Of a DNA stretch of 64,000 bases, positions 33,303 to 42,167 are shown piece by piece. The DNA is from Chloroflexota bacterium (GTDB lineage Bacteria; Chloroflexota; Anaerolineae; Anaerolineales; Villigracilaceae): NCBI GenBank assembly GCA_013388855.1, contig JACAEM010000011.1, positions 1 through 64,000 of the forward strand, written 5' to 3'. Within the stretch, counting starts at the first letter, position 1, and each line of letters opens with the position of its first letter. The notes beneath the pieces were generated by a model. The model made no database searches. It worked only from the letters and a program-made list of their open reading frames with translations, and had not been told where the DNA came from. The translations under genes and the position numbers were made by a program.

Positions 33303-33665
33303 TCAAAAATTGGTATTGTCTTCCAATGACTGCATGATGGCGAGTATAACGCCATCCATGTTCTTCATCACCTCGTTATTCCGAAAGCGGAGGACTTTGT
33401 AGCCCAGCGATTCCAAGTATTGCGTTCTTTCTTCGTCGTACGCGACCTGCTCCAAATGCTGACCCCCGTCCAGTTCGATGATGAGTTTCTTTTTGACGCA
33501 GCAAAAATCGGCAATGTAGTGCCCGATGGCGTGCTGCCTTCTGAAGTTGACTCCCAATTGATCGCCGCGCAGGCGCGCCCAGAGTTTGCGCTCGGCGGGG
33601 GTGAGGGATTTGCGTAACTGGCGGGCTTTTTGGTAGCCTTGCGGGGTGGTTCTGCGTGGGGGCAT
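33303..33665 (-). CDS. DUF559 / very-short-patch-repair-like endonuclease domain protein
   Basis: 120 residues. It has the family pattern LRKSLTPAERKLWARLRGDQLGVNFRRQHAIGHYIADFCC followed by KLIIELDGGQH and KVLRFRNNEV. Asp in IADF and Glu/Asp in IELDG form a PD-(D/E)XK nuclease core. DUF559 proteins are common near restriction-modification loci. It follows hsdS by about 10 bases on the same strand. Its substrate is unknown. Confidence 0.85.
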   Translation of the reverse strand: MPPRRTTPQGYQKARQLRKSLTPAERKLWARLRGDQLGVNFRRQHAIGHYIADFCCVKKKLIIELDGGQHLEQVAYDEERTQYLESLGYKVLRFRNNEVMKNMDGVILAIMQSLEDNTNF

Positions 33666-33674
33666 GAGCAGATT

Positions 33675-34817
33675 TTACCCCCACCCAGCCTCCACCAAAT
33701 CCTTTGGATTTGGGGGAGGTGTCCGAAGGACGGAGGGGGTGAAACTCAGCGCCAGCAGACCCTCGACCCGCGCCACCACACCCGCAAATTCATCTTGCAG
33801 GCTCAGCGGTGGGACAGGGATAACCAGTTCTTTGAGTTTTTCACCAGTCAAATGGGCAATCGTAACTTGTGAAGTAAAGTCGCCCAAGCCGCCAGTTTGT
33901 GCCAGCCACCAAAATAGATGAACAAGATATTCTGATTTCACCAATTCGGCATTTGGGCGAACTCGATGTAATGCCTTCTGAAAATAGCATTCTTCGATTT
34001 GATTTTTCCAAATAGCACAGCGACCCACTTCCCCGCCTTCGCACATCAAAATATCGCCATATTGAAGCCGAAATTCTTTTCGGTCTTTCTCGTCGAAATC
34101 CATTTCGGCAATATCAGACAAATCAAAGCGAAACCATTGAACATTGAAGTTTCGCAAATATTGGCGTTTATGTTTGCCAGTTTGCTTTTTGTCATCAAGC
34201 ATTTTGCCGAGTCGCGACTGGCAAACATCTTCAAACTTTGCTAATTCCCATTTTTTATCATTTACTCTTACGTGCCCAAACATCTCCAAAAACACGGACT
34301 GGAGCAGGGACTCGCCGAGTTCGTGCGCTGTCCGCCGCAGGTGGCGCAGATAGTCGGCGCGCGCCAGCAGGGACGCAATCCGCTTTTGCTCGGTCAGCGG
34401 GGGAAGGGGAATTTTTATGGTTTCAAGGTCTTCGCGTGCAATGGCAGCAAATGTTGAGCCTGTTCCTGCTTTTGCTAATTCAGGTTCGTAAAACCGCAAA
34501 AAGTAAAGCAGAAAATCACGGTCAAGTTTTTCACCAACTCGAATAACCGACAAACCACGTCCAATCGCAGATTTTTCTCGGCTTATATTTGTTGGACCCA
34601 CTGGCGCACGAACAGAAATCAAAATATCGCCAGCCTCAGCAATGCGGCTTGGTTCTGTGCAATAAACTCTTGGCGTTGGGTACATATCGCCAAAATCAGT
34701 TTTGCCTTGATAAAACGGCAGACCTTCTCCAACTGTGTTGTATGTTGAAGAAGGCGGGCTTTGTCCCATGATGACTTGGGCGACATCGGCAAGATACTTC
34801 CAATTCGAATCAAGCAT
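33675..34817 (-). CDS. hsdS: Type I restriction-modification specificity subunit
   Basis: 380 residues. Two target-recognition domains: the first opens with DVAQVIMGQSPPSSTYN, and each ends with the typical conserved-region block, LETIKIPLPPLTEQKRIASLL and LKELVIPVPPLSLQDEFAGVV. It would dictate the DNA sequence recognised by the HsdM methyltransferase. The C-terminal 20 or so residues are encoded by a dispersed GC-rich palindrome (33678-33741). It follows the membrane/TPR gene by 6 bases. The gene is intact although hsdM and hsdR are not. Confidence 0.92.
   Translation of the reverse strand: MLDSNWKYLADVAQVIMGQSPPSSTYNTVGEGLPFYQGKTDFGDMYPTPRVYCTEPSRIAEAGDILISVRAPVGPTNISREKSAIGRGLSVIRVGEKLDRDFLLYFLRFYEPELAKAGTGSTFAAIAREDLETIKIPLPPLTEQKRIASLLARADYLRHLRRTAHELGESLLQSVFLEMFGHVRVNDKKWELAKFEDVCQSRLGKMLDDKKQTGKHKRQYLRNFNVQWFRFDLSDIAEMDFDEKDRKEFRLQYGDILMCEGGEVGRCAIWKNQIEECYFQKALHRVRPNAELVKSEYLVHLFWWLAQTGGLGDFTSQVTIAHLTGEKLKELVIPVPPLSLQDEFAGVVARVEGLLALSFTPSVLRTPPPNPKDLVEAGWG
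33678..33741. repeat. Palindromic repeat forming the end of hsdS
   Basis: CCACCAAATCC pairs with GGATTTGGGGGAGG-type sequence, followed by GTCCGAAGGACGGAGGGGGTG. It supplies the final hsdS codons and its stop region, suggesting insertion into an older C-terminus. Confidence 0.6.
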
Positions 34818-34823
34818 GTGAAC

Positions 34824-36276
34824 CTATGGGGGTGGAATATACGCTGCAGTTGGGGTAGCAAAAACAGGCGGATTATCTGTATAAGGCGGTTTAGATCCTC
34901 TTTTAATTTCTGCTATTGTTCTCAAAGCATCATCTTTTTGCTCACTAGAAGCCAGTTTGGAATCAACGACCTCGTATAAACATTGAATTGCAAGTAAATC
35001 GTTATTGACCATCCAATACGCTTTAGCCAGCGCAAGTTTTATACCATTTGGGTTTCCACCCTCAGCTTCTACAAGGCTAATAGCCATACCAAAGAAATCA
35101 ATACTTTGAGAGTAATTACCTAAGAAAAAGTATACATTTCCCAACCCCGTGTAGGCAGATGCTGTCTCTTTTTTTTTGTAGGGATTTTTCGTAGCTATAT
35201 CTTGCTTGCTCATATTGTTTATTAGAATAGAAGTAATTCCCCATCGCTATATATGTTGCATAATAATCGGGGTCGATTTCCACTGCCTTATCATAGTCGT
35301 TCAAGGCTAAATCACCTTGAGAAATTGAAGCGTAAGCACGACCACGCATTACATATAAAACAGCCAACGTTCTTCGTAACGCCAAATCCTGCTCAGTTAA
35401 AGCTGGCGCGGGCTTCAGTTCTGGCTCCAACGTTTTTATTGCGACAGAAAACTCATTTATGGCAGATGTAAATCCCTGCGGGGTTTGATCTTTAGTTAAA
35501 TAGATATATCCTAACGCAAAAGTAGAAAGAGCAGTTGTACGAACAGAAAATTGGGTTGGCAGATTGCTGAGTTCCACATTTTGGAAATCAGCCTGAATAA
35601 CGTCTTCGTCTACCGAGTTTGGTAAAATCTCAGATTTTGTAAAAATTAGGTAAGGTCGAATATTTTCTGGTGAAGACTTGTTGACATCTCCCCAAATAAC
35701 AAGCATCGCATTGTTTTTCTGCCCAACTCTTATTGCTTCCGTTTTGTCTTTAAGACCACAGATTCTTTCAACAACAATTCTTTCATGAGTATTGGAAAGA
35801 TCAATTCTTGTTCTTAAATTACGAGCCGCCTGATCTGCAAGATCTTTGCTGTTTTCGGTCAATATTCCGCCTTCTCTAAAATCTGCGACAAGGATTCCGA
35901 ATTGATCATCTGAAAAAGGTTGTGGAAGATGCAAGCAAGGTTTAGTTATTAGAATTATCCCGATGTAAATATATGCGACAATATTTAAGCTTAACAGAAT
36001 AGTTGCCCCATTTCTTTGTGTTGAAGAATAAGCATACCTAATTATTTTTTTCTCGTCCTCAACCTTCTCCTTTTTCTTTGTCAACACATAAATACAAATT
36101 ATCACGACAAGTATAGAAACTAAGTAAAAAATAACTGAAATTACAGATTTTAGATTGGACAACAACGCAATTTGGCTTATAAAAACAACGACCTGTAATA
36201 TTGCTACTACAATAGTTGCCAAGGATGACCATTCCTCAAAACGATTCTTTGGTTGTTGACCATTTGACGAAGTCAT
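34824..36276 (-). CDS. Membrane protein with TPR repeats, embedded between hsdM and hsdS (frame break at an A9 tract)
   Basis: The ATG at 36274-36276 overlaps the hsdM stop codon (ATGA). Three or four TM segments occupy the first ~125 residues. A FlgO/TolB-like alpha/beta region (FGILVADFREGG...AMLVIWGDVNKS) and TPRs (DLALNDYDKAVEIDPDYYATYIAMGNYFYSNKQYEQARYSYEKSL) follow. The frame then breaks at nine A residues (35169-35177, T on the plus strand). Unshifted, it stops at 35116. Reading one A fewer continues as QKKETASAYTGLGNVYFFLGNYSQSIDFF and on to 34824. The gene is AT-richer than hsdM and hsdS. Its position suggests accessory cargo of the RM operon. Confidence 0.7.
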
Positions 36277-38042
36277 ATTAGCCTCCGTAATTCTTTTATC
36301 TCGTCCAACATCACACTCTCCAACCGCGCCAAACGTTCCAGCGTTACAGCGGGCCTCTCGTGATAGGCGGCGTCCGCGTCCACCTGGCGGTAGCGGCTGG
36401 CGGAGAGGTCGTATTTATTCGCTTTCACCTGCTCCTTCGCCACCCAAAACTGGCGGGTCAGGCGGTCGAGTTCGGATTGTGGATTGGAGATTTGAGATTC
36501 GAGTTCAGATAATCGCGCCTGCGCGGCGGAGAGTTCGCCCTCACCCGACCCTTCGGGTCGACCTCTCCCGAGGGGAGAGGTGGTATTGCTCCCTTCTCCC
36601 TGCGGGAGAAGGGCTGGGGATGAGGGAGAAACCACCGACTCAAACATCAACCGATTGATTTCTTCATGTAATTTCAGCCGTTCGGCTTTGAGCGGAGTCA
36701 ACTGTCGGCGTAGGTCAGCGATCCGTTTGGCGCGAGCAGATTGAAAGTCCGCGTTGAAGCGGTTCTTCCAACATTCCAAAATATCGGGGATGTCATTCTC
36801 ATCCACTTTCGTCCGCTTATCGTCCAGCGAAAAACCATCGTGCTCCATGTCGTAGAACCAGATGTCCTTGGTCTGCGCGCCCTTTGTAAAAAGAAGCACC
36901 GCCGTGCTCACACCCGCATACGGCTTGAAGACGCCCGAAGGCATCGAGACCACACCGTCCAGCCGATTCTCTTCGATGATGCGCTTGCGCACCTCCACAT
37001 GGGCGCGGCTCGAACCGAACAACACGCCATCGGGCACGATCACCGCCGCCCGTCCGCCCATATCCAGCGCGCGCAGGATCAAATGCAGGAAGAGCAGTTC
37101 GCTTTTGGTGGTGTCCGATGGCAGATCGGGGTGGACATCGCCCTTATCCACGGCGCCTTTGAAGGGCGGGTTCATCAAAATGACATCGAACTCGCCCGCG
37201 CCGTCATAGCCCTTGGACAAGGTGTCCATATAAAAGAACTGCGGCGACTGAATGCCGTGCAGCATCAGGTTCATCGAGCCGATGCGCAGCATGGTCATAC
37301 CTGAGTCGTTGTCGAAGCCGCGCAGGTATTTTTTGCCCTTCATGAACTTGCGCGCGTCGTCCTGCAACTGGTCGCCGATGAGATGATGCGCCATGCCGTC
37401 CGCGTCATATTCAAGGATGTTTTTGGACGTGGCTTTCTCCAAAATGTGCTGATGCGCGTTGATCAGAAATCCGCCCGTGCCCGCGGCAAGGTCGCCGATG
37501 CGTTCCTTCGGCTTCGGGTCGAGCATCTGCACCATCATGCGGATGATGTGGCGCGGCGTGCGGAACTGTCCATTGCGTCCCGCGATGCTCAAATGACTGA
37601 GCAGGTACTCGTACAGGTCGCCCTGCACATCCTAGTTCTGCTGGCTGATCTCCATCTGGTCGATCAACTTACACGCCTCGATCAACAGACTGGGCTTGTT
37701 GATCTTGTACTCGGCGGTCTTCATGTACTCGCCGAAGGAATTCTCCTCATCTGCCAATTTGGATAGATTGGGGAAGACCTCTTTCTTAAGATGACTCAGC
37801 GCCTCCTCCGCCTTGAACTGAGTCCAATGACTCCAACGCATCTCCTTCGGGATTTTGGGCTGGTACCGTTCCCCGCGGCGCTTTGCCTGTCTTTCGGCGG
37901 CATTCTCACGGTCATCCAACCGCTTCAGAAACAACAAATACGAAAACTGCTCGATCGCATCGAGCGGGTTGGTCAATCCCCCCGTCCAGAACTTATCCCA
38001 GAGGGCATCTACTTGTGATCGGAGTTTAGGGTCGGTGAGCAT
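36273..38042 (-). pseudogene. hsdM: Type I DNA methyltransferase subunit hsdM interrupted by an in-frame TAG
   Basis: From the ATG at 38040-38042 (GAGGAT upstream) the frame runs through an HsdM N-terminal helical domain, hits TAG at 37632-37634 after ISQQN, and continues in the same frame as DVQGDLYEYLLSHLSIAGRNGQF. The methyltransferase core is otherwise complete: DLAAGTGGFLI (SAM binding) and MNPPF (catalytic). A CAG to TAG change would explain the break. Translation would yield a 136-aa N-terminal fragment and, if restarted, a ~450-aa C-terminal part. Two palindromic repeats add a Ser/Gly/Pro-rich insert near 36538-36630. Confidence 0.85.
36538..36630. repeat. Two adjacent palindromic repeats read in frame inside hsdM
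   Basis: GACCTCTCCCGAGGGGAGAGG and CTCCCTTCTCCCTGCGGGAGAAGG palindromes sit side by side, flanked by GCCCTCACCCGACCCTTCGGGTC and GGGGATGAGGG. They encode SPSSPALLPQGEGSNTTSPL and following residues, between the methyltransferase core and the C-terminal helical region. Confidence 0.7.
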
Positions 38043-38124: not shown

Positions 38125-38409
38125 TTAGCCTATCGGTCGCTTAAGCATAATAAGGACTTGATCAGTTATAGAATTACCAGCACCAGCGTGCTTTGAACTA
38201 TCTAACACTACCAAGCTTCTTGTAAGTGCAACCATAGAAACCGGTTCCCATCCATCCTTTGCCAACTTAGAAACTTCTTCCCATGCCTTTCCCCATGAGT
38301 TACCAAGTTTGCCATAATTCATAGTGATAATCATTGAACCTCTTGTTCCTGATGTATCCGTATCAAGGTCAAGAGGAAGAACGATATATTTTGTTTCCCA
38401 TTTTTGCAT
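38125..38409 (-). CDS. DUF4177-like small protein
   Basis: 94 residues. The pattern KWETKYIVLPLD near the start and KLAKDGWEPVSMVAL in the middle resembles DUF4177-type proteins (WEYKVI...LGKEGWELV). AAAGGAG precedes the ATG. It is the last gene of the compact five-gene cassette between hsdR and hsdM, 16 bases after the Nudix gene. Function is unknown; assignment to DUF4177 is tentative. Confidence 0.7.
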   Translation of the reverse strand: MQKWETKYIVLPLDLDTDTSGTRGSMIITMNYGKLGNSWGKAWEEVSKLAKDGWEPVSMVALTRSLVVLDSSKHAGAGNSITDQVLIMLKRPIG

Positions 38410-38425
38410 GGCAATTGCTCCTTTG

Positions 38426-39115
38426 TTAGATTAACCCGTTGAGTTTGGCTCTGGTGTATGCGGCAACAGTGAAGCCATCGGTGATCTCGCCGTCAGCGAT
38501 CATTTTTTCGAGTTCGGGGACAGAAACCCACATCGGATTCTCAATGCCTTCTTCAACCTGCATTTCTCCAACAGAAGCCATACGAGCAAGAAAGAGATTG
38601 ATGGGATTTCCTTCTAGTCCTGTATTGTTATACACAATGCCAAGTTCAAAAATCTCTTCTACTTCGCCGTTAATTTCCTCCCTCACTTCTGTTATTGCAT
38701 GAGTTTTTGCGCTAACACCTGACTTTCCGAAACCGCGTGGAATTTCCCAATGTCGCATACGAGTCGCGTGGCGATAGTGTTGAAAGAGAAGAATTTTTCC
38801 ATCTTTTTCTGGGAGAACAACTACACCTGCGGCACCTCCTTCTAGGTAAGCACGGTTGTATATCCGAATATAACCGTTACGATATCCACCAGGAAATTCG
38901 ACAAGATCCCGCAGCACCAACAAGCTAGGGTCGTCAAGGATAAGACCAATATCTGCCCACGCTTCTGATCCTCCAATCTCTTGAAGGGCTAAACGGCGTT
39001 GTTCTTGCCATTGTGAAACCTCATTCTTATCACCGATAATCTTTATTAGTGCATTGGAATTATCGAAAAGCTCTGGCAGAGAATCTTTGATGGTTTCATA
39101 AGTTTTCATTTTCAT
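38426..39115 (-). CDS. Nudix hydrolase, second of two in the cassette
   Basis: 229 residues from the ATG at 39113-39115 (AGGAG upstream); an ATG at 39145 would overlap the upstream gene. A ~90-residue N-terminal region shared with the other Nudix protein (WADIGLILDDPSLLVLRDLVEFPGG) precedes the Nudix fold. The Nudix box near 128-151 (PRGFGKSGVSAKTHAITEVREEING) keeps the EVxEE metal ligands. Nudix enzymes cleave nucleoside diphosphates linked to another moiety; the substrate here is unknown. The pair of paralogues flanks the 500-aa gene. Confidence 0.85.
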   Translation of the reverse strand: MKMKTYETIKDSLPELFDNSNALIKIIGDKNEVSQWQEQRRLALQEIGGSEAWADIGLILDDPSLLVLRDLVEFPGGYRNGYIRIYNRAYLEGGAAGVVVLPEKDGKILLFQHYRHATRMRHWEIPRGFGKSGVSAKTHAITEVREEINGEVEEIFELGIVYNNTGLEGNPINLFLARMASVGEMQVEEGIENPMWVSVPELEKMIADGEITDGFTVAAYTRAKLNGLI

Positions 39116-39128
39116 GATAAGGGTGCTC

Positions 39129-40631
39129 CTATCCGAGAACTTCATTCCAGTCTATTTCCTTTTTGCTTTGATCGGCATCTCGTGCTATCCCCAGGTCTTG
39201 TTCTTCCAAGAATTTGAAGTGTGGGTCGTCCTTAAGCGCACCTTGGACTTCTCTCCAAATCTCTCTACCATTATTTACCTTGCTTCTCATGAAATTTACA
39301 CTGATACCTAAATCAACATATTCACTAGCCGATATTCTCAGATTTATCGCTATTGGTGCAAGTCCGATAGATACAGGTCCCGATAATGTTTGCACCAAAA
39401 TTCTGGAGGCGTCTGTAGGATCAAGCATAAGTTGCATTAAAGCACCGCCAATGGCTACAACAATCATCATATTCGGCTGCAATCGAGACACTAGTTCACC
39501 AGCACTCTTTTTGGTGTTCGCAATTTTCATATCAGTGATCTTCCGATTTAACTTATTAAATCTTGTTGCGACATCATCGATTTTTTCCGCAAATTCCATA
39601 GGATGTCGTAATAGCGAATTTAGGCTTTGAGTATATTGCTCCCATTCATCGGTATTCCTAATAGTAAGCACATCTGCTAAAGACAAAATATCAAGACCTT
39701 TTAAGTACAAGGCATCATTGAGAATTGCAAACTGCATTCTTTTCAAAGAATCAATAAAATCCTTCACACGATTGTCTCTAAGCAAATTTTGCATGGTGGC
39801 TTGATTTACATCGCCAAGAACCGTTCGATCTGGTGAACCTTTTGGCGTAAATGCATACCGTCCAAATGCGTCTGGCACATTTACGGTATATCGAAGGTCG
39901 AATATCTCTTTCAATTCAGCTGCAAATGGTTTGTTCTTATCGTAATACCCATCGTCGATCTTTGAATTGTCAACACAAACAAACTTCTTATAAAGCTCGT
40001 TACGGACGACATTCTTACCTTGCGATGCAATATCGAAAGTGTAACTTGCAACTTCTATAAGTTTTTTTCTAAAAGCTTCACGATGTCTCTTCGGGATTCT
40101 AAATGCGTTAGTAAGATGCTCTGTTCGATCTGGCATGTTCAAGTTTTGTACATAACTGTGAAATACAGCAGCGATATTCTTAAAATCATCTTCTTGTTTG
40201 CCCCAGTCGAGCCGAACACAAGCAAGTTTTGTATCCTGAATTACATCCATCCACCTATTCCATTTTTCATCACCAATCTCAAAGGTTGGTCTTTGGTCAG
40301 GAGACTCTTCCGTCAGCAAATAGTCAACAATTACTTTTCTTCTCAGCAACTCCTGAAAATTTTTCTTATCATTACCTGAATAGTCATCAACAACTATGGA
40401 GTTATTAAACAAAGCCACGCGATTAACAACCACTTGTGGAGCATAGATAAGAGCACGTCGCCATTCACTTAAGACCGCCTTTTTTCTTCCTTTCCACGAA
40501 ATTAATGGCTTTGCTTGCTTGATCATTCGCCTTAGCGCATTGGTCGGAGCCCATTGGTTATCCAATCCTTGTGGAACAATCGCGCCTGGATTCAATTTAC
40601 CAGCTGTAAGTTTTTCAAATTCGACAGACAT
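39129..40631 (-). CDS. Unknown 500-aa protein, core of the Nudix-flanked cassette
   Basis: 500 residues, no recognised family. Visible features: a basic N-terminal third, a WNRWMDVIQDTKLACVRLDWGK block (about 122-145), Lys/Arg-rich stretches (IPKRHREAFRKKLIEV), a likely helical region around 300-370, and one hydrophobic stretch (about 388-440, MMIVVAIGGALMQLML and SIGLAPIAINLRI) that could be membrane-associated or a buried core. GGAGGATAAC precedes the ATG. The gene is AT-rich relative to the window. Tight spacing to a Nudix gene on each side argues that the three proteins work together. Confidence 0.75.
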   Translation of the reverse strand: MSVEFEKLTAGKLNPGAIVPQGLDNQWAPTNALRRMIKQAKPLISWKGRKKAVLSEWRRALIYAPQVVVNRVALFNNSIVVDDYSGNDKKNFQELLRRKVIVDYLLTEESPDQRPTFEIGDEKWNRWMDVIQDTKLACVRLDWGKQEDDFKNIAAVFHSYVQNLNMPDRTEHLTNAFRIPKRHREAFRKKLIEVASYTFDIASQGKNVVRNELYKKFVCVDNSKIDDGYYDKNKPFAAELKEIFDLRYTVNVPDAFGRYAFTPKGSPDRTVLGDVNQATMQNLLRDNRVKDFIDSLKRMQFAILNDALYLKGLDILSLADVLTIRNTDEWEQYTQSLNSLLRHPMEFAEKIDDVATRFNKLNRKITDMKIANTKKSAGELVSRLQPNMMIVVAIGGALMQLMLDPTDASRILVQTLSGPVSIGLAPIAINLRISASEYVDLGISVNFMRSKVNNGREIWREVQGALKDDPHFKFLEEQDLGIARDADQSKKEIDWNEVLG

Positions 40632-40649
40632 GTTATCCTCCAGATTATG

Positions 40650-41351
40650 CTACATGTTTTTGTACAATGAATATGCCCACAGCGAAAACCAATCGCTGAG
40701 TTGACCCTTTTTCACAATTTGTTCCAACTTCGACATCTTAACCCATCTGTATTTCGATAAACCCTCACCTTTTTCGAGCTTAATTTTCTGTCTATCAGGA
40801 ATTTCAACCAAAAAAACCGCCGTTCCACCTTTCCCTTCTTTGATCTTTGTAAGTAAGGTCAGTTTTGCATTGGAGACTCCTACTTCTTCCTCTAATTCAG
40901 CCCTTGCATTTTTCTCTGCCGATAGACCTGGCTCTCCAAACCCACGTGGGAACTCCCAACTCCAATTTCGGTCTTCATGTCGAAATTTGCGAATCATCAA
41001 AACCTTATCACCTTGAACACACATTAGAACTGAGTTAATTCCTCCACCTTCTGAGCTTTTACGATTGATCCAGCGAATATATCCACCTACCCTTCCATTG
41101 GGAAATTTCTCATCGGGAGGAAACTCGACCATATCGCGTAAAACATAGAACCATTGATCTTCTGCAAGAACTCCAATATCAATCCAACAAGTAGGATTTC
41201 CTTTTTTCTTGAGTTCAGTACGAATTTTTTTCTGTTCAGCAAGGATACGCTTCTTGTCAGTGATAATTTTGATTTCACCCTTTTCACCCTTATTTTCAAA
41301 CAAACCAGGGTTTTGTAACATTAGTTCAAAGTATTTGCCGAGAGAGTTCAT
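40650..41351 (-). CDS. Nudix hydrolase, first of two in the cassette
   Basis: 233 residues. The N-terminal region (CWIDIGVLAEDQWFYVLRDMVEFPPD) is clearly related to that of the second Nudix protein. The Nudix box (PRGFGEPGLSAEKNARAELEEEVGV, about 135-159) retains ELEEEVG. The canonical Arg preceding EL is replaced by Ala. AGGTAGG precedes the ATG. It follows the small membrane gene by 7 bases and precedes the 500-aa gene by 18. Two divergent Nudix enzymes in one operon suggest recognition of, or clearance of, a specific nucleotide derivative. Confidence 0.85.
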   Translation of the reverse strand: MNSLGKYFELMLQNPGLFENKGEKGEIKIITDKKRILAEQKKIRTELKKKGNPTCWIDIGVLAEDQWFYVLRDMVEFPPDEKFPNGRVGGYIRWINRKSSEGGGINSVLMCVQGDKVLMIRKFRHEDRNWSWEFPRGFGEPGLSAEKNARAELEEEVGVSNAKLTLLTKIKEGKGGTAVFLVEIPDRQKIKLEKGEGLSKYRWVKMSKLEQIVKKGQLSDWFSLWAYSLYKNM

Positions 41352-41358
41352 TGAAAAC

Positions 41359-41589
41359 CTACCTTTGTCTATTGTTGAAGGCTTTTTTGCCCAGATGCCA
41401 TAAGAAACTGATTAATACAAAACCGAGAATAACAAAAGGCGAAAATCCCCATATTACAATATTGAATCCCATAACGATAAACCCATCTTTCTCGTTCTGG
41501 GTAATCGTTCTGACTGTTTCTTGCAGAAATGAAACAGCTTTTGATACTGCTCCCCATGGTGTCCATTCTTCCTCGTTTGAATATCTCAT
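41359..41589 (-). CDS. Small single-pass membrane protein at the head of the cassette
   Basis: 76 residues from the second of two adjacent ATGs, placed 5 bases after AGGAGG. A charged N-terminus (MRYSNEEEWTPWGAVSKAVSFL) and an amphipathic helix precede one long hydrophobic segment (about 38-62, GFNIVIWGFSPFVILGFVLISFLW) and a basic tail. It starts just past the hsdR remnant and leads the AT-rich cassette. In defence-type operons such proteins often act at the membrane, but nothing here proves that. Confidence 0.65.
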   Translation of the reverse strand: MRYSNEEEWTPWGAVSKAVSFLQETVRTITQNEKDGFIVMGFNIVIWGFSPFVILGFVLISFLWHLGKKAFNNRQR

Positions 41590-41602
41590 CATATCCTCCT
41601 CA

Positions 41603-41942
41603 TTATATTTTATTACCAATTTCCATAGTCTTCACAAACTCAACCACTTCTTCCACTTCCTTATCCGTAAACCACCGTTCCACCGCATCCGCGCCAAACA
41701 TATCCAGCGGCGGCTCGTACAGGTCGGCGGGGTCGAGATGGCGCTTTTGCAGGAAGACGCTTTGCACCGCGCGCAGGAAGCGAATCTGGTCGGCGGTGTA
41801 GCGATAGTCGGCGATGTAACGCTCGAATTGGCGACGCGCCAATTTTGACCTTGCTGTGGTCGCTCAAGTACCAGCCCGCGCGCTCCAGTTGCGGGTCAAT
41901 CAGTTGTTTGCGGGTTTGGTCTTCGGAGAGTTTGCGGGGCAT
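41603..41942 (-). pseudogene. hsdR: Remnant of the type I restriction subunit hsdR (internal deletion)
   Basis: The ATG at 41940-41942 opens MPRKLSEDQTRKQLIDPQLERAGWYLSDHSKVKI, the usual HsdR N-terminus. It then shifts out of frame at about 41842-41850 and is joined to an HsdR C-terminus: RRQFERYIADYRYTADQIRFLRAVQSVFLQKRHL...LDMFGADAVERWFTDKEVEEVVEFVKTM, ending at 41603. About 34 N-terminal and 79 C-terminal codons remain of an expected ~900. The nuclease and helicase domains are gone, so the system cannot restrict DNA through this gene. Confidence 0.8.
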
Positions 41943-42167
41943 GATCCGATTCCCATTTACAATCGTCCTGCCAATACAACAAGAATACAAGAAAATAACG
42001 CTATACGCAAGGTGCTTTGTGTTACAAAATTGATGTCAAAACCCCTCCACAAAAGAAGGTCTTCCACCTCGCCCTTTTCACCCTGCCTATCTGTAAATCA
42101 AACCTTGCTATTTGATCGGCTCCTCCATTATATATTGGCTATACGATAAAGTAGACCTGCCTTGCGC
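41943..42167. other. Intergenic boundary of the RM island
   Basis: 225 bases between the hsdR remnant and the YgjV/GNAT gene, moderately AT-rich. I see no gene, tRNA or clear attachment site here. Confidence 0.5.

What the first reader, a model, noticed from the sequence alone, without database searches (positions are those of the whole stretch)
38125..41589. Compact Nudix-unknown-Nudix cassette embedded in a type I RM locus
Five co-directional genes with strong ribosome binding sites and gaps of 7-18 bases lie between the hsdR remnant and hsdM: a small membrane protein, Nudix, an unrecognised 500-aa protein, a second Nudix with the same unusual N-terminal region, and a DUF4177-like protein. 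The block is visibly AT-richer than its surroundings. Genes inside RM operons are often defence cargo. Two Nudix enzymes flanking a large unknown protein suggests a signal nucleotide that is made and cleared, or a nucleotide-depletion system. Function is inference; the gene order and motifs are seen.
Basis: partly seen in the sequence, partly recalled or inferred. Interest (0 to 1): 0.78.

Follow-up and report, generated by a model that had tools for sequence, protein, structure and literature searches.

The report
Nudix-bracketed swappable cassette in restriction locus
Between two genes of a DNA-restriction system, this bacterium carries two related nucleotide-cutting (Nudix) enzymes around an unknown protein; in relatives the two enzymes stay while the protein between them is often replaced, which suggests an undescribed modular defence cassette whose function is untested.

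Summary
In detail: five co-directional AT-rich genes (40.5% GC; window 53.0%) lie between an hsdR remnant and an hsdM with an in-frame stop. The 500-aa protein ("Big") has no family in Pfam, NCBIfam, PHROGs or PDB sequences; its fold was not identified. Comparison changed the picture. (1) In 26 of 26 loci from four phyla a Nudix gene lies beside Big. (2) In the window's family, 13 of 152 genomes carry NudA, and all 13 have a second Nudix beyond a centre that is Big in 9 and another protein set in 4. (3) Flanks and centre have separate histories: L026 and L206 share 83% NudA, 83% NudB, but 28% Big. (4) In 15 of 16 related type I RM loci the hsdR-hsdM gap holds cargo, including a CD-NTase and AAA-ATPase/UvrD pairs. 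Best reading: one occupant of an RM cargo slot, a Nudix-bracketed cassette with an exchangeable centre, probably a conflict or defence module. The chemistry (Nudix enzymes cutting an NDP-X compound, gated by the centre) is inference. Against it: outside Anaerolineales the pair lies among housekeeping genes, and a lone Big exists. The membrane and DUF4177-like proteins are not conserved parts.

The parts
41603..41990 (-). hsdR remnant (start of the gene joined to its end; about 820 codons missing against L018)
   Evidence: tblastn with L018 HsdR: residues 3-36 at 41942-41841 and 855-913 at 41833-41660; EcoEI_R_C Pfam hit
41359..41592 (-). small membrane protein (by eye), 77 aa; not conserved in relatives
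   Evidence: ORF, RBS GAGGAGG; no tblastn hit outside the window's own genome among 217 held sequences
40650..41351 (-). NudA: Nudix hydrolase with an N-terminal extension of about 100 aa; constant part of the cassette
   Evidence: PF00293 48.5 bits; 13 of 152 family genomes (my count); 70-83% identity among eight cassettes; one clade, support 100
39129..40631 (-). Big: 500-aa protein of an undescribed family; variable centre of the cassette
   Evidence: no Pfam/NCBIfam/PHROGs/PDB-sequence family; AF2 pLDDT 82.7 whole, 90.9 for residues 1-345; 26 relatives
38426..39145 (-). NudB: Nudix hydrolase like ADP-ribose pyrophosphatases; start may be 39115
   Evidence: PF00293 28.4 bits; PDB sequences 2yvm 1.8e-7 and ADPR pyrophosphatase 1mk1 1.5e-6; a relative lies beside Big in 26 of 26 loci
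38125..38409 (-). DUF4177-like protein, 94 aa; family label below cut-off; not conserved in relatives
   Evidence: PF13783 17.1 bits against 25; no tblastn hit outside the window's own genome
36273..38054 (-). hsdM with an in-frame TAG at 37632-37634
   Evidence: translation, codon, PF12161 and PF02384 hits in the two pieces; uninterrupted 569-aa genes in L018 and L091
35116..36276 (-). membrane plus TPR protein between hsdM and hsdS, GC 0.37: a second insertion
   Evidence: TPR hits, GC; found nowhere else among held sequences
33675..34817 (-). hsdS
   Evidence: 29-30% identity to L018 and L091 HsdS

Best explanation
The block is one occupant of a cargo slot between hsdR and hsdM of an Anaerolineales type I RM family. 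The occupant is a cassette: NudA - exchangeable centre - NudB. Shown by sequence: the frame, the exchange of the centre, and cargo of defence type in the same slot elsewhere. Inferred: it is a defence or other genetic-conflict module in which the variable central protein (here Big) senses the trigger or makes a nucleotide, and the two constant Nudix enzymes supply the shared chemistry by cutting the diphosphate of an NDP-X compound (ADP-ribose, a dinucleotide or an NDP-sugar). It travels with RM loci but does not need one: here the RM genes look dead and the cassette is open.
For: Slot: 22 of 251 genomes have this HsdM; I examined 18, of which 16 also have hsdR, and 15 of 16 hold genes in between, among them a CD-NTase (L175, E 1.5e-71 to a cGAS/DncV-like nucleotidyltransferase) and an AAA ATPase/UvrD-helicase pair (L166; L170 by eye; a plasmid relative of the L166 pair lies beside a type I RM M gene). 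Frame: 13 NudA genomes of 152; a second Nudix follows in 13 of 13; centre Big in 9, other in 4 (L165, L207, L208, L209); the Big HMM finds none of those four at E<=0.001. Exchange: L026 against L206 NudA 83, NudB 83, Big 28%; window against L026 NudA 79, NudB 47, Big 82%; the Big tree rejects window+L018 (AU p 0.0002), the NudB tree rejects window+L026 (p 0.0085). Among window, L018, L036, L091 and L026, NudA is 73-80% identical and Big 23-82%; HsdM in window, L018 and L091 is 77-81%. Position: 7 of 13 NudA cassettes stand before hsdM of this RM family (L036 a remnant; a transposase gene intervenes in L018 and L208), 2 more lie beside another type I RM (L206, L211). NudA dN/dS 0.04-0.09 in 9 of 10 pairs, with dS near saturation and one pair undefined.
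Against: Four of 13 NudA cassettes show no RM neighbour (L026, L027 on a 4.8-kb contig, L209, L210). At 18 Big loci without this RM system (14 outside Anaerolineales) neighbours include ATP synthase, cysteinyl-tRNA synthetase, SpoU methylase and amidase genes, and PADLOC hits of 122 neighbours do not clearly exceed those of 119 control proteins. A lone Big (L083) and a truncated one (L082) lack a Nudix. No activity is shown; Big matches no known fold convincingly (best Z 4.6). HsdM dS is 0.64-0.93 while cassette dS is 1.5 or more wherever defined, so cassette and hsdM were not simply inherited together. Position does not prove function.
Confidence: 0.5

Rival explanations
1. The Nudix pair is the off-switch: the centre makes or releases a nucleotide signal and the Nudix enzymes destroy it, setting a threshold against self-activation.
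For: In L208 and L215 the centre holds a protein that by eye has class III nucleotide-cyclase motifs plus a 169-aa membrane protein resembling Pycsar effectors, which would be a signal-effector pair needing only regulation. In L165, L208, L212 and L215 an SDR of NDP-sugar type is present (L165: E 1.2e-32 to a dTDP-glucose 4,6-dehydratase; the others by eye), i.e. a source of NDP-X substrate.
Against: The cyclase and membrane assignments were not confirmed (no match). Nudix enzymes cut diphosphates, not cyclic monophosphates (general knowledge). No enzymatic signature is known for Big.
Confidence: 0.25
2. Ordinary passengers: an accessory nucleotide- or NDP-sugar-metabolism pair that happened to enter RM loci in Anaerolineales.
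For: Housekeeping neighbours at loci without the RM system; patchy chromosomal distribution (10 of 101 Streptomyces genomes including the query genome, two of them with split or truncated copies); no plasmid, phage or viral-contig copies found.
Against: Repeated exchange of the centre between constant flanks and the strong divergence of Big are unusual for metabolism; same slot as a CD-NTase and AAA/UvrD cargo.
Confidence: 0.2
3. PrrC-like guard: Big is a nuclease held in check by the RM complex and released when a phage inhibits it.
For: Embedded in type I RM as PrrC is linked to one (PMC2610378, abstract). Weak structural rows for the N-terminal part include entries that I recall as PIN-domain nucleases (1w8i, Rrp44 in 5g06/5c0x/6lqs, 1y82, HARP 8kd9; Z 2.1-3.5, 6 of 14 entries).
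Against: Profile comparison with 28 proteins from a PIN search gave probability 0.17, exceeded by 1 of 20 shuffles (some rows of that set were wrong; the cleaned repeat was also negative). Most relatives of Big are not in RM loci. In the window the RM looks dead, so an RM-restrained toxin would be free.
Confidence: 0.05

Closest known systems
TgvAB embedded in the type I RM of Vibrio cholerae VPI-2 (PMC11411939, passages read)
   Same: Defence module between genes of one type I RM system
   Different: GmrSD-type system; no Nudix and no exchangeable centre between constant flanks in the passages seen
DarTG2 embedded in a type I RM of E. coli, RptR island (PMC12255303, passages read)
   Different: DarTG2 toxin-antitoxin; no Nudix pair in the passages seen
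PrrC/RloC anticodon nucleases (PMC2610378, abstract)
   Same: PrrC is genetically linked to a type I RM
   Different: Big has no ABC-ATPase hit in Pfam; no nuclease evidence; RloC is rarely linked to RM
Nudix domains of NAD-ADP-ribose conflict systems (PMC9503650, PMC7159879; passages read)
   Same: ADP-ribose-type Nudix proteins in conflict settings
   Different: The Big family and the Nudix-centre-Nudix frame do not appear in the passages seen
CBASS and Pycsar (as other contents of the slot or frame)
   Same: A CD-NTase occupies the same slot (L175); a cyclase-like centre (by eye) lies between NudA and NudB in L208
   Different: The window cassette has neither enzyme

Membership tests
Nudix hydrolase superfamily | NUDIX domain above Pfam cut-off | tested here: met
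   48.5 and 28.4 bits; cut-off 21.1
Nudix hydrolase superfamily | Nudix box GX5EX7REUXEEXGU | tested here: inconclusive
   Glutamates of the EUXEE part kept in nearly all of 33 aligned rows; the first Glu is mostly missing and the box Arg is replaced in NudA and Anaerolineales NudB (box recalled)
ADP-ribose pyrophosphatase | subfamily assignment above a curated cut-off | tested here: inconclusive
   NCBIfam models far below cut-off; closest PDB sequences of NudB are a MutT/nudix protein and ADPR pyrophosphatases, of NudA RNA pyrophosphohydrolase at 2.5e-4
ADP-ribose pyrophosphatase | hydrolysis of ADP-ribose | not testable with these tools
   needs enzymology
PIN-domain nuclease (Big) | profile similarity to PIN domains | tested here: not met
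   hhalign probability 0.17; 20 shuffles reach 0.22; cleaned set negative; no PIN family among Pfam hits of 25 members
PIN-domain nuclease (Big) | PIN fold | tested here: inconclusive
   no Foldseek hit at E<=0.001; PIN-type entries (recalled as such) only at Z 2.1-3.5
RM-embedded defence cargo | genes lie between subunit genes of one RM system, recurrently | tested here: met
   between hsdR and hsdM in window, L018, L091, L165, L208; before hsdM in L207 (contig end upstream) and before a remnant in L036
RM-embedded defence cargo | anti-phage or anti-plasmid activity | not testable with these tools
   needs plaque assays
PrrC/RloC | ABC-ATPase domain | tested here: not met
   no such Pfam hit for Big or 24 relatives at E<=1
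DUF4177 | Pfam score over cut-off | tested here: not met
   17.1 bits against 25
Pycsar (centre of L208, not of the window) | class III cyclase and Pycsar membrane effector | tested here: inconclusive

The most novel reading that the evidence does not exclude
A modular immune platform: a constant pair of Nudix hydrolases brackets an exchangeable sensor/signal module (Big, other large proteins, or a cyclase-like plus NDP-sugar-dehydratase set), so that different triggers or signals feed one shared nucleotide-cleaving chemistry. Big may be a new nucleotide-acting or nucleotide-sensing fold, and other centres may be its very remote relatives (the L207 centre ranks directly behind the 31 Big proteins that trained the model and above 241 background proteins, E 0.012).
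Probability: 0.25. Interest if true: 0.85.

Novelty: new variant of a known kind. Interest (0 to 1): 0.7.

Why it matters
Defence genes embedded in RM loci are a known kind, but a constant enzyme pair with an exchangeable centre was not found in my literature searches (open-licence PMC papers only, listings and passages). If it is a defence platform it links Nudix chemistry to immunity on the host side, gives a name to a protein family (Big) found in four phyla with no family in the libraries searched, and marks the hsdR-hsdM gap of Anaerolineales as a place to look for new systems.

Tried and rejected
PIN nuclease: suggested by weak structural rows and by motif spacing seen by eye, not supported by two profile tests. 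HUP/Rossmann folds (cyclodipeptide synthase, NAD synthetase, pantothenate synthetase) and a GT-B glycosyltransferase at Z 2.8-4.6: at the level the tool calls a common arrangement. Viral structure library: no match at E<=0.001. A match may have been missed; absence from those lists is no proof of a new fold. Phage, plasmid and viral-contig copies of Big: none found. My reading by eye that the L165 617-aa centre contains a Big-like stretch: the Big HMM does not list it among its best 20, and the family comparison is only slightly above shuffles (score 20.0 for three centres and 23.2 for five, probability 1-3%; best of 20 shuffles of the three-centre set 18.3; the five-centre set was not shuffled). 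Gabija label for L166/L170: no PDB match; only an AAA/UvrD gene pair is shown. PADLOC excess around Big loci without this RM system: not clear (the table is cut at 25 families, most of them models of type II or III methyltransferases matched by one member each, and tables do not map to loci; the RM loci were left out on purpose, and L206, L209-L211 were not yet known). Whole-genome surveys use a heuristic first look, so counts are lower bounds.
Full report
1. Observation. The five genes, their order, gaps and AT-richness are as described. The hsdR remnant is confirmed, and hsdM carries an in-frame stop, so the RM system looks dead while the cassette reading frames are open. The membrane protein and the DUF4177-like protein were found only in the window's own genome among all 217 held sequences.

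2. The family of the 500-aa protein. Big has no hit above cut-off in Pfam or NCBIfam, none in PHROGs and none in PDB sequences; PADLOC gave only weak rows (best E 0.0012, one member of 25). Relatives: 9 of 400 genomes of the phylum including its own, and 26 loci in genome contigs (some are the same genomes as) from Anaerolineales and other Chloroflexota MAGs, Thermogemmatispora, Streptomyces, Streptacidiphilus, Streptomonospora, Actinomadura, a Verrucomicrobia MAG and Magnetospirillum. A Nudix like NudA/NudB lies beside Big in 26 of 26 of these, at most 908 bases between matched parts. In 11 further stretches (two repeat earlier loci) it is beside Big in 9; missing in L082 (Big truncated) and L083 (orphan copy in the genome of L026). 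Two remote HEAT-Big fusions (L024, L025) have none beside them. Frequency is low and patchy: 10 of 101 Streptomyces, 2 of 296 Actinomycetota, 5 of 251 in the order (each including the query genome), and only the query genome among 249 Pseudomonadota and 194 Verrucomicrobiota.

3. Structure. AF2 models are confident (mean pLDDT 82.7 for 500 residues, 90.9 for residues 1-345): an alpha/beta N-terminal part, helices, and a C-terminal beta region of lower confidence. No solved structure matches convincingly. Polar positions invariant in 25 members (D24, N25, Q26, E56, N70, R71, N76, R210, K241, D245; N25 only nearly invariant in the set) look like a functional site, but its chemistry is unknown.

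4. The Nudix pair. NudA and NudB are homologous over nearly their full length. NudA forms one clade with support 100, placed beside Anaerolineales NudB, so it looks like a duplicate made there (quick tree). NudB is closest to a MutT/nudix protein and ADP-ribose pyrophosphatases in the PDB, NudA to RNA pyrophosphohydrolase and NudE, the latter weakly. Most catalytic glutamates of the box are kept.

5. The frame and its exchangeable centre. In 152 genomes of the window's family, 17 match NudA at E<=1e-25; by my reading of identities 13 have NudA itself and 4 only a NudB. All 13 have a second Nudix after the centre. Three of the 13 (G982, G1541, G1560) I equate with L027, L026 and L036 from matching contig numbers and coordinates. 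The centre is Big in 9 (window, L018, L026, L027, L036, L091, L206, L210, L211) and something else in 4: L165 (617-aa membrane protein plus NDP-sugar dehydratase-like SDR), L207 (468 aa), L208 (169-aa membrane protein, 529-aa protein with cyclase motifs by eye, SDR by eye), L209 (493 aa; its second Nudix matches NudB at only 28%). The Big HMM finds none of these at E<=0.001. L018 also has a 326-aa membrane/HEAT protein in the centre. In L211 NudA is interrupted by a stop. L212, L214 and L215 show related centres before a NudB without NudA; L213 is a lone NudB.

6. Exchange. Identities: L026/L206 NudA 83, NudB 83, Big 28; window/L026 NudA 79, NudB 47, Big 82; window/L018 80, 78, 44. The Big tree rejects window+L018 and the NudB tree rejects window+L026 (AU p 0.0002 and 0.0085); Big of L026+L206 as a clade is rejected more weakly (p 0.033, with a long branch). 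The NudA tree does not resolve these rows (AU p 0.33). HsdM in three RM loci is 77-81% and HsdS 29-35%, so Big varies like the specificity subunit, not like the flanking genes.

7. The slot. HsdM of L091 found 22 of 251 genomes. I examined 18 (15 fetched plus the window, L018 and L091); 4 were not examined. In 16 both hsdR (whole or in part) and hsdM are present, and 15 of 16 hold genes between them. Besides the Nudix cassettes (4 of 16: window, L018, L091, L165) there are a CD-NTase with further genes (L175), AAA ATPase/UvrD pairs (L166, L170; L170 by eye), a NACHT protein (L163, partial matches), and by eye NB-ARC-like, KAP-like, DUF3800-like, GxxExxY, TPR and transposase genes; L171 is empty. 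L036 is a defence-type neighbourhood: hsdM remnant, a FokI-cleavage-domain hit below cut-off, a QatC-like protein (E 3e-62). L091 has a second copy of the hsdR 3' end beside the cassette, a possible trace of recombination.

8. Against. At 18 Big loci without this RM system (14 outside Anaerolineales) the neighbours include ATP synthase, cysteinyl-tRNA synthetase, SpoU methylase, amidase and, at the orphan, phosphoglycerate kinase, and PADLOC hits do not clearly exceed controls. dS of hsdM (0.64-0.93) is below that of the cassette genes (1.5 or more where defined, often saturated), so the present cassettes were not simply inherited with hsdM; this fits exchange but also other rates.

9. Reading. 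Position, exchange and company make a conflict module the best reading; I put it at 0.5 including the inferred division of labour (centre = trigger or signal, Nudix pair = shared cleavage of an NDP-X). The reverse roles (Nudix as off-switch) are the main rival. Literature: RM-embedded defence modules are known (PMC11411939 and PMC12255303, passages read; PMC2610378, abstract), Nudix proteins in NAD/ADP-ribose conflicts are known (PMC9503650, PMC7159879, passages read); a Nudix-centre-Nudix frame was not found in the searches named.

Noticed in passing
window 35116-36276: A second AT-rich insertion (membrane plus TPR protein, GC 0.37) lies between hsdM and hsdS of the same RM locus.
   Followed up: no
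L175:2646-3515 and following genes (G970): A CD-NTase with a small membrane protein (Cap15-like by eye) sits between a truncated hsdR and hsdM: CBASS-type genes embedded in a type I RM locus.
   Followed up: partly
L166:6218-9449, L170:4158-7341; relative on plasmid NZ_CP146692.1: AAA ATPase/UvrD-helicase pairs (Gabija-like by eye) in the hsdR-hsdM gap; a plasmid relative lies beside a type I RM M gene.
   Followed up: partly
L024:15187-17946, L025:1822-4641: Proteins of 919-939 aa with HEAT-like repeats (by eye) fused to a Big-like region, next to ATP synthase genes, without a Nudix neighbour.
   Followed up: no
L164:6553-9507, L165:5522-7375, L212:10469-12343: Different large slot proteins begin with a similar membrane module (NB-ARC/TPR-like body in L164, unknown body in L165 and L212), as if one anchor is combined with different bodies.
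   Followed up: no
L091:11424-11630: The 3' end of hsdR is duplicated next to the cassette, a possible trace of how cargo enters the slot.
   Followed up: no
L049:9956-11489 (Magnetospirillum) and L081: Big is split over two reading frames beside a Nudix gene (frameshift or sequencing error).
   Followed up: no
window 33303-33665; L091:5047-5481, L172:350-739, L208:2578-2970: A small DUF559-like (by eye) endonuclease-type gene recurs close to hsdS in these RM loci.
   Followed up: no
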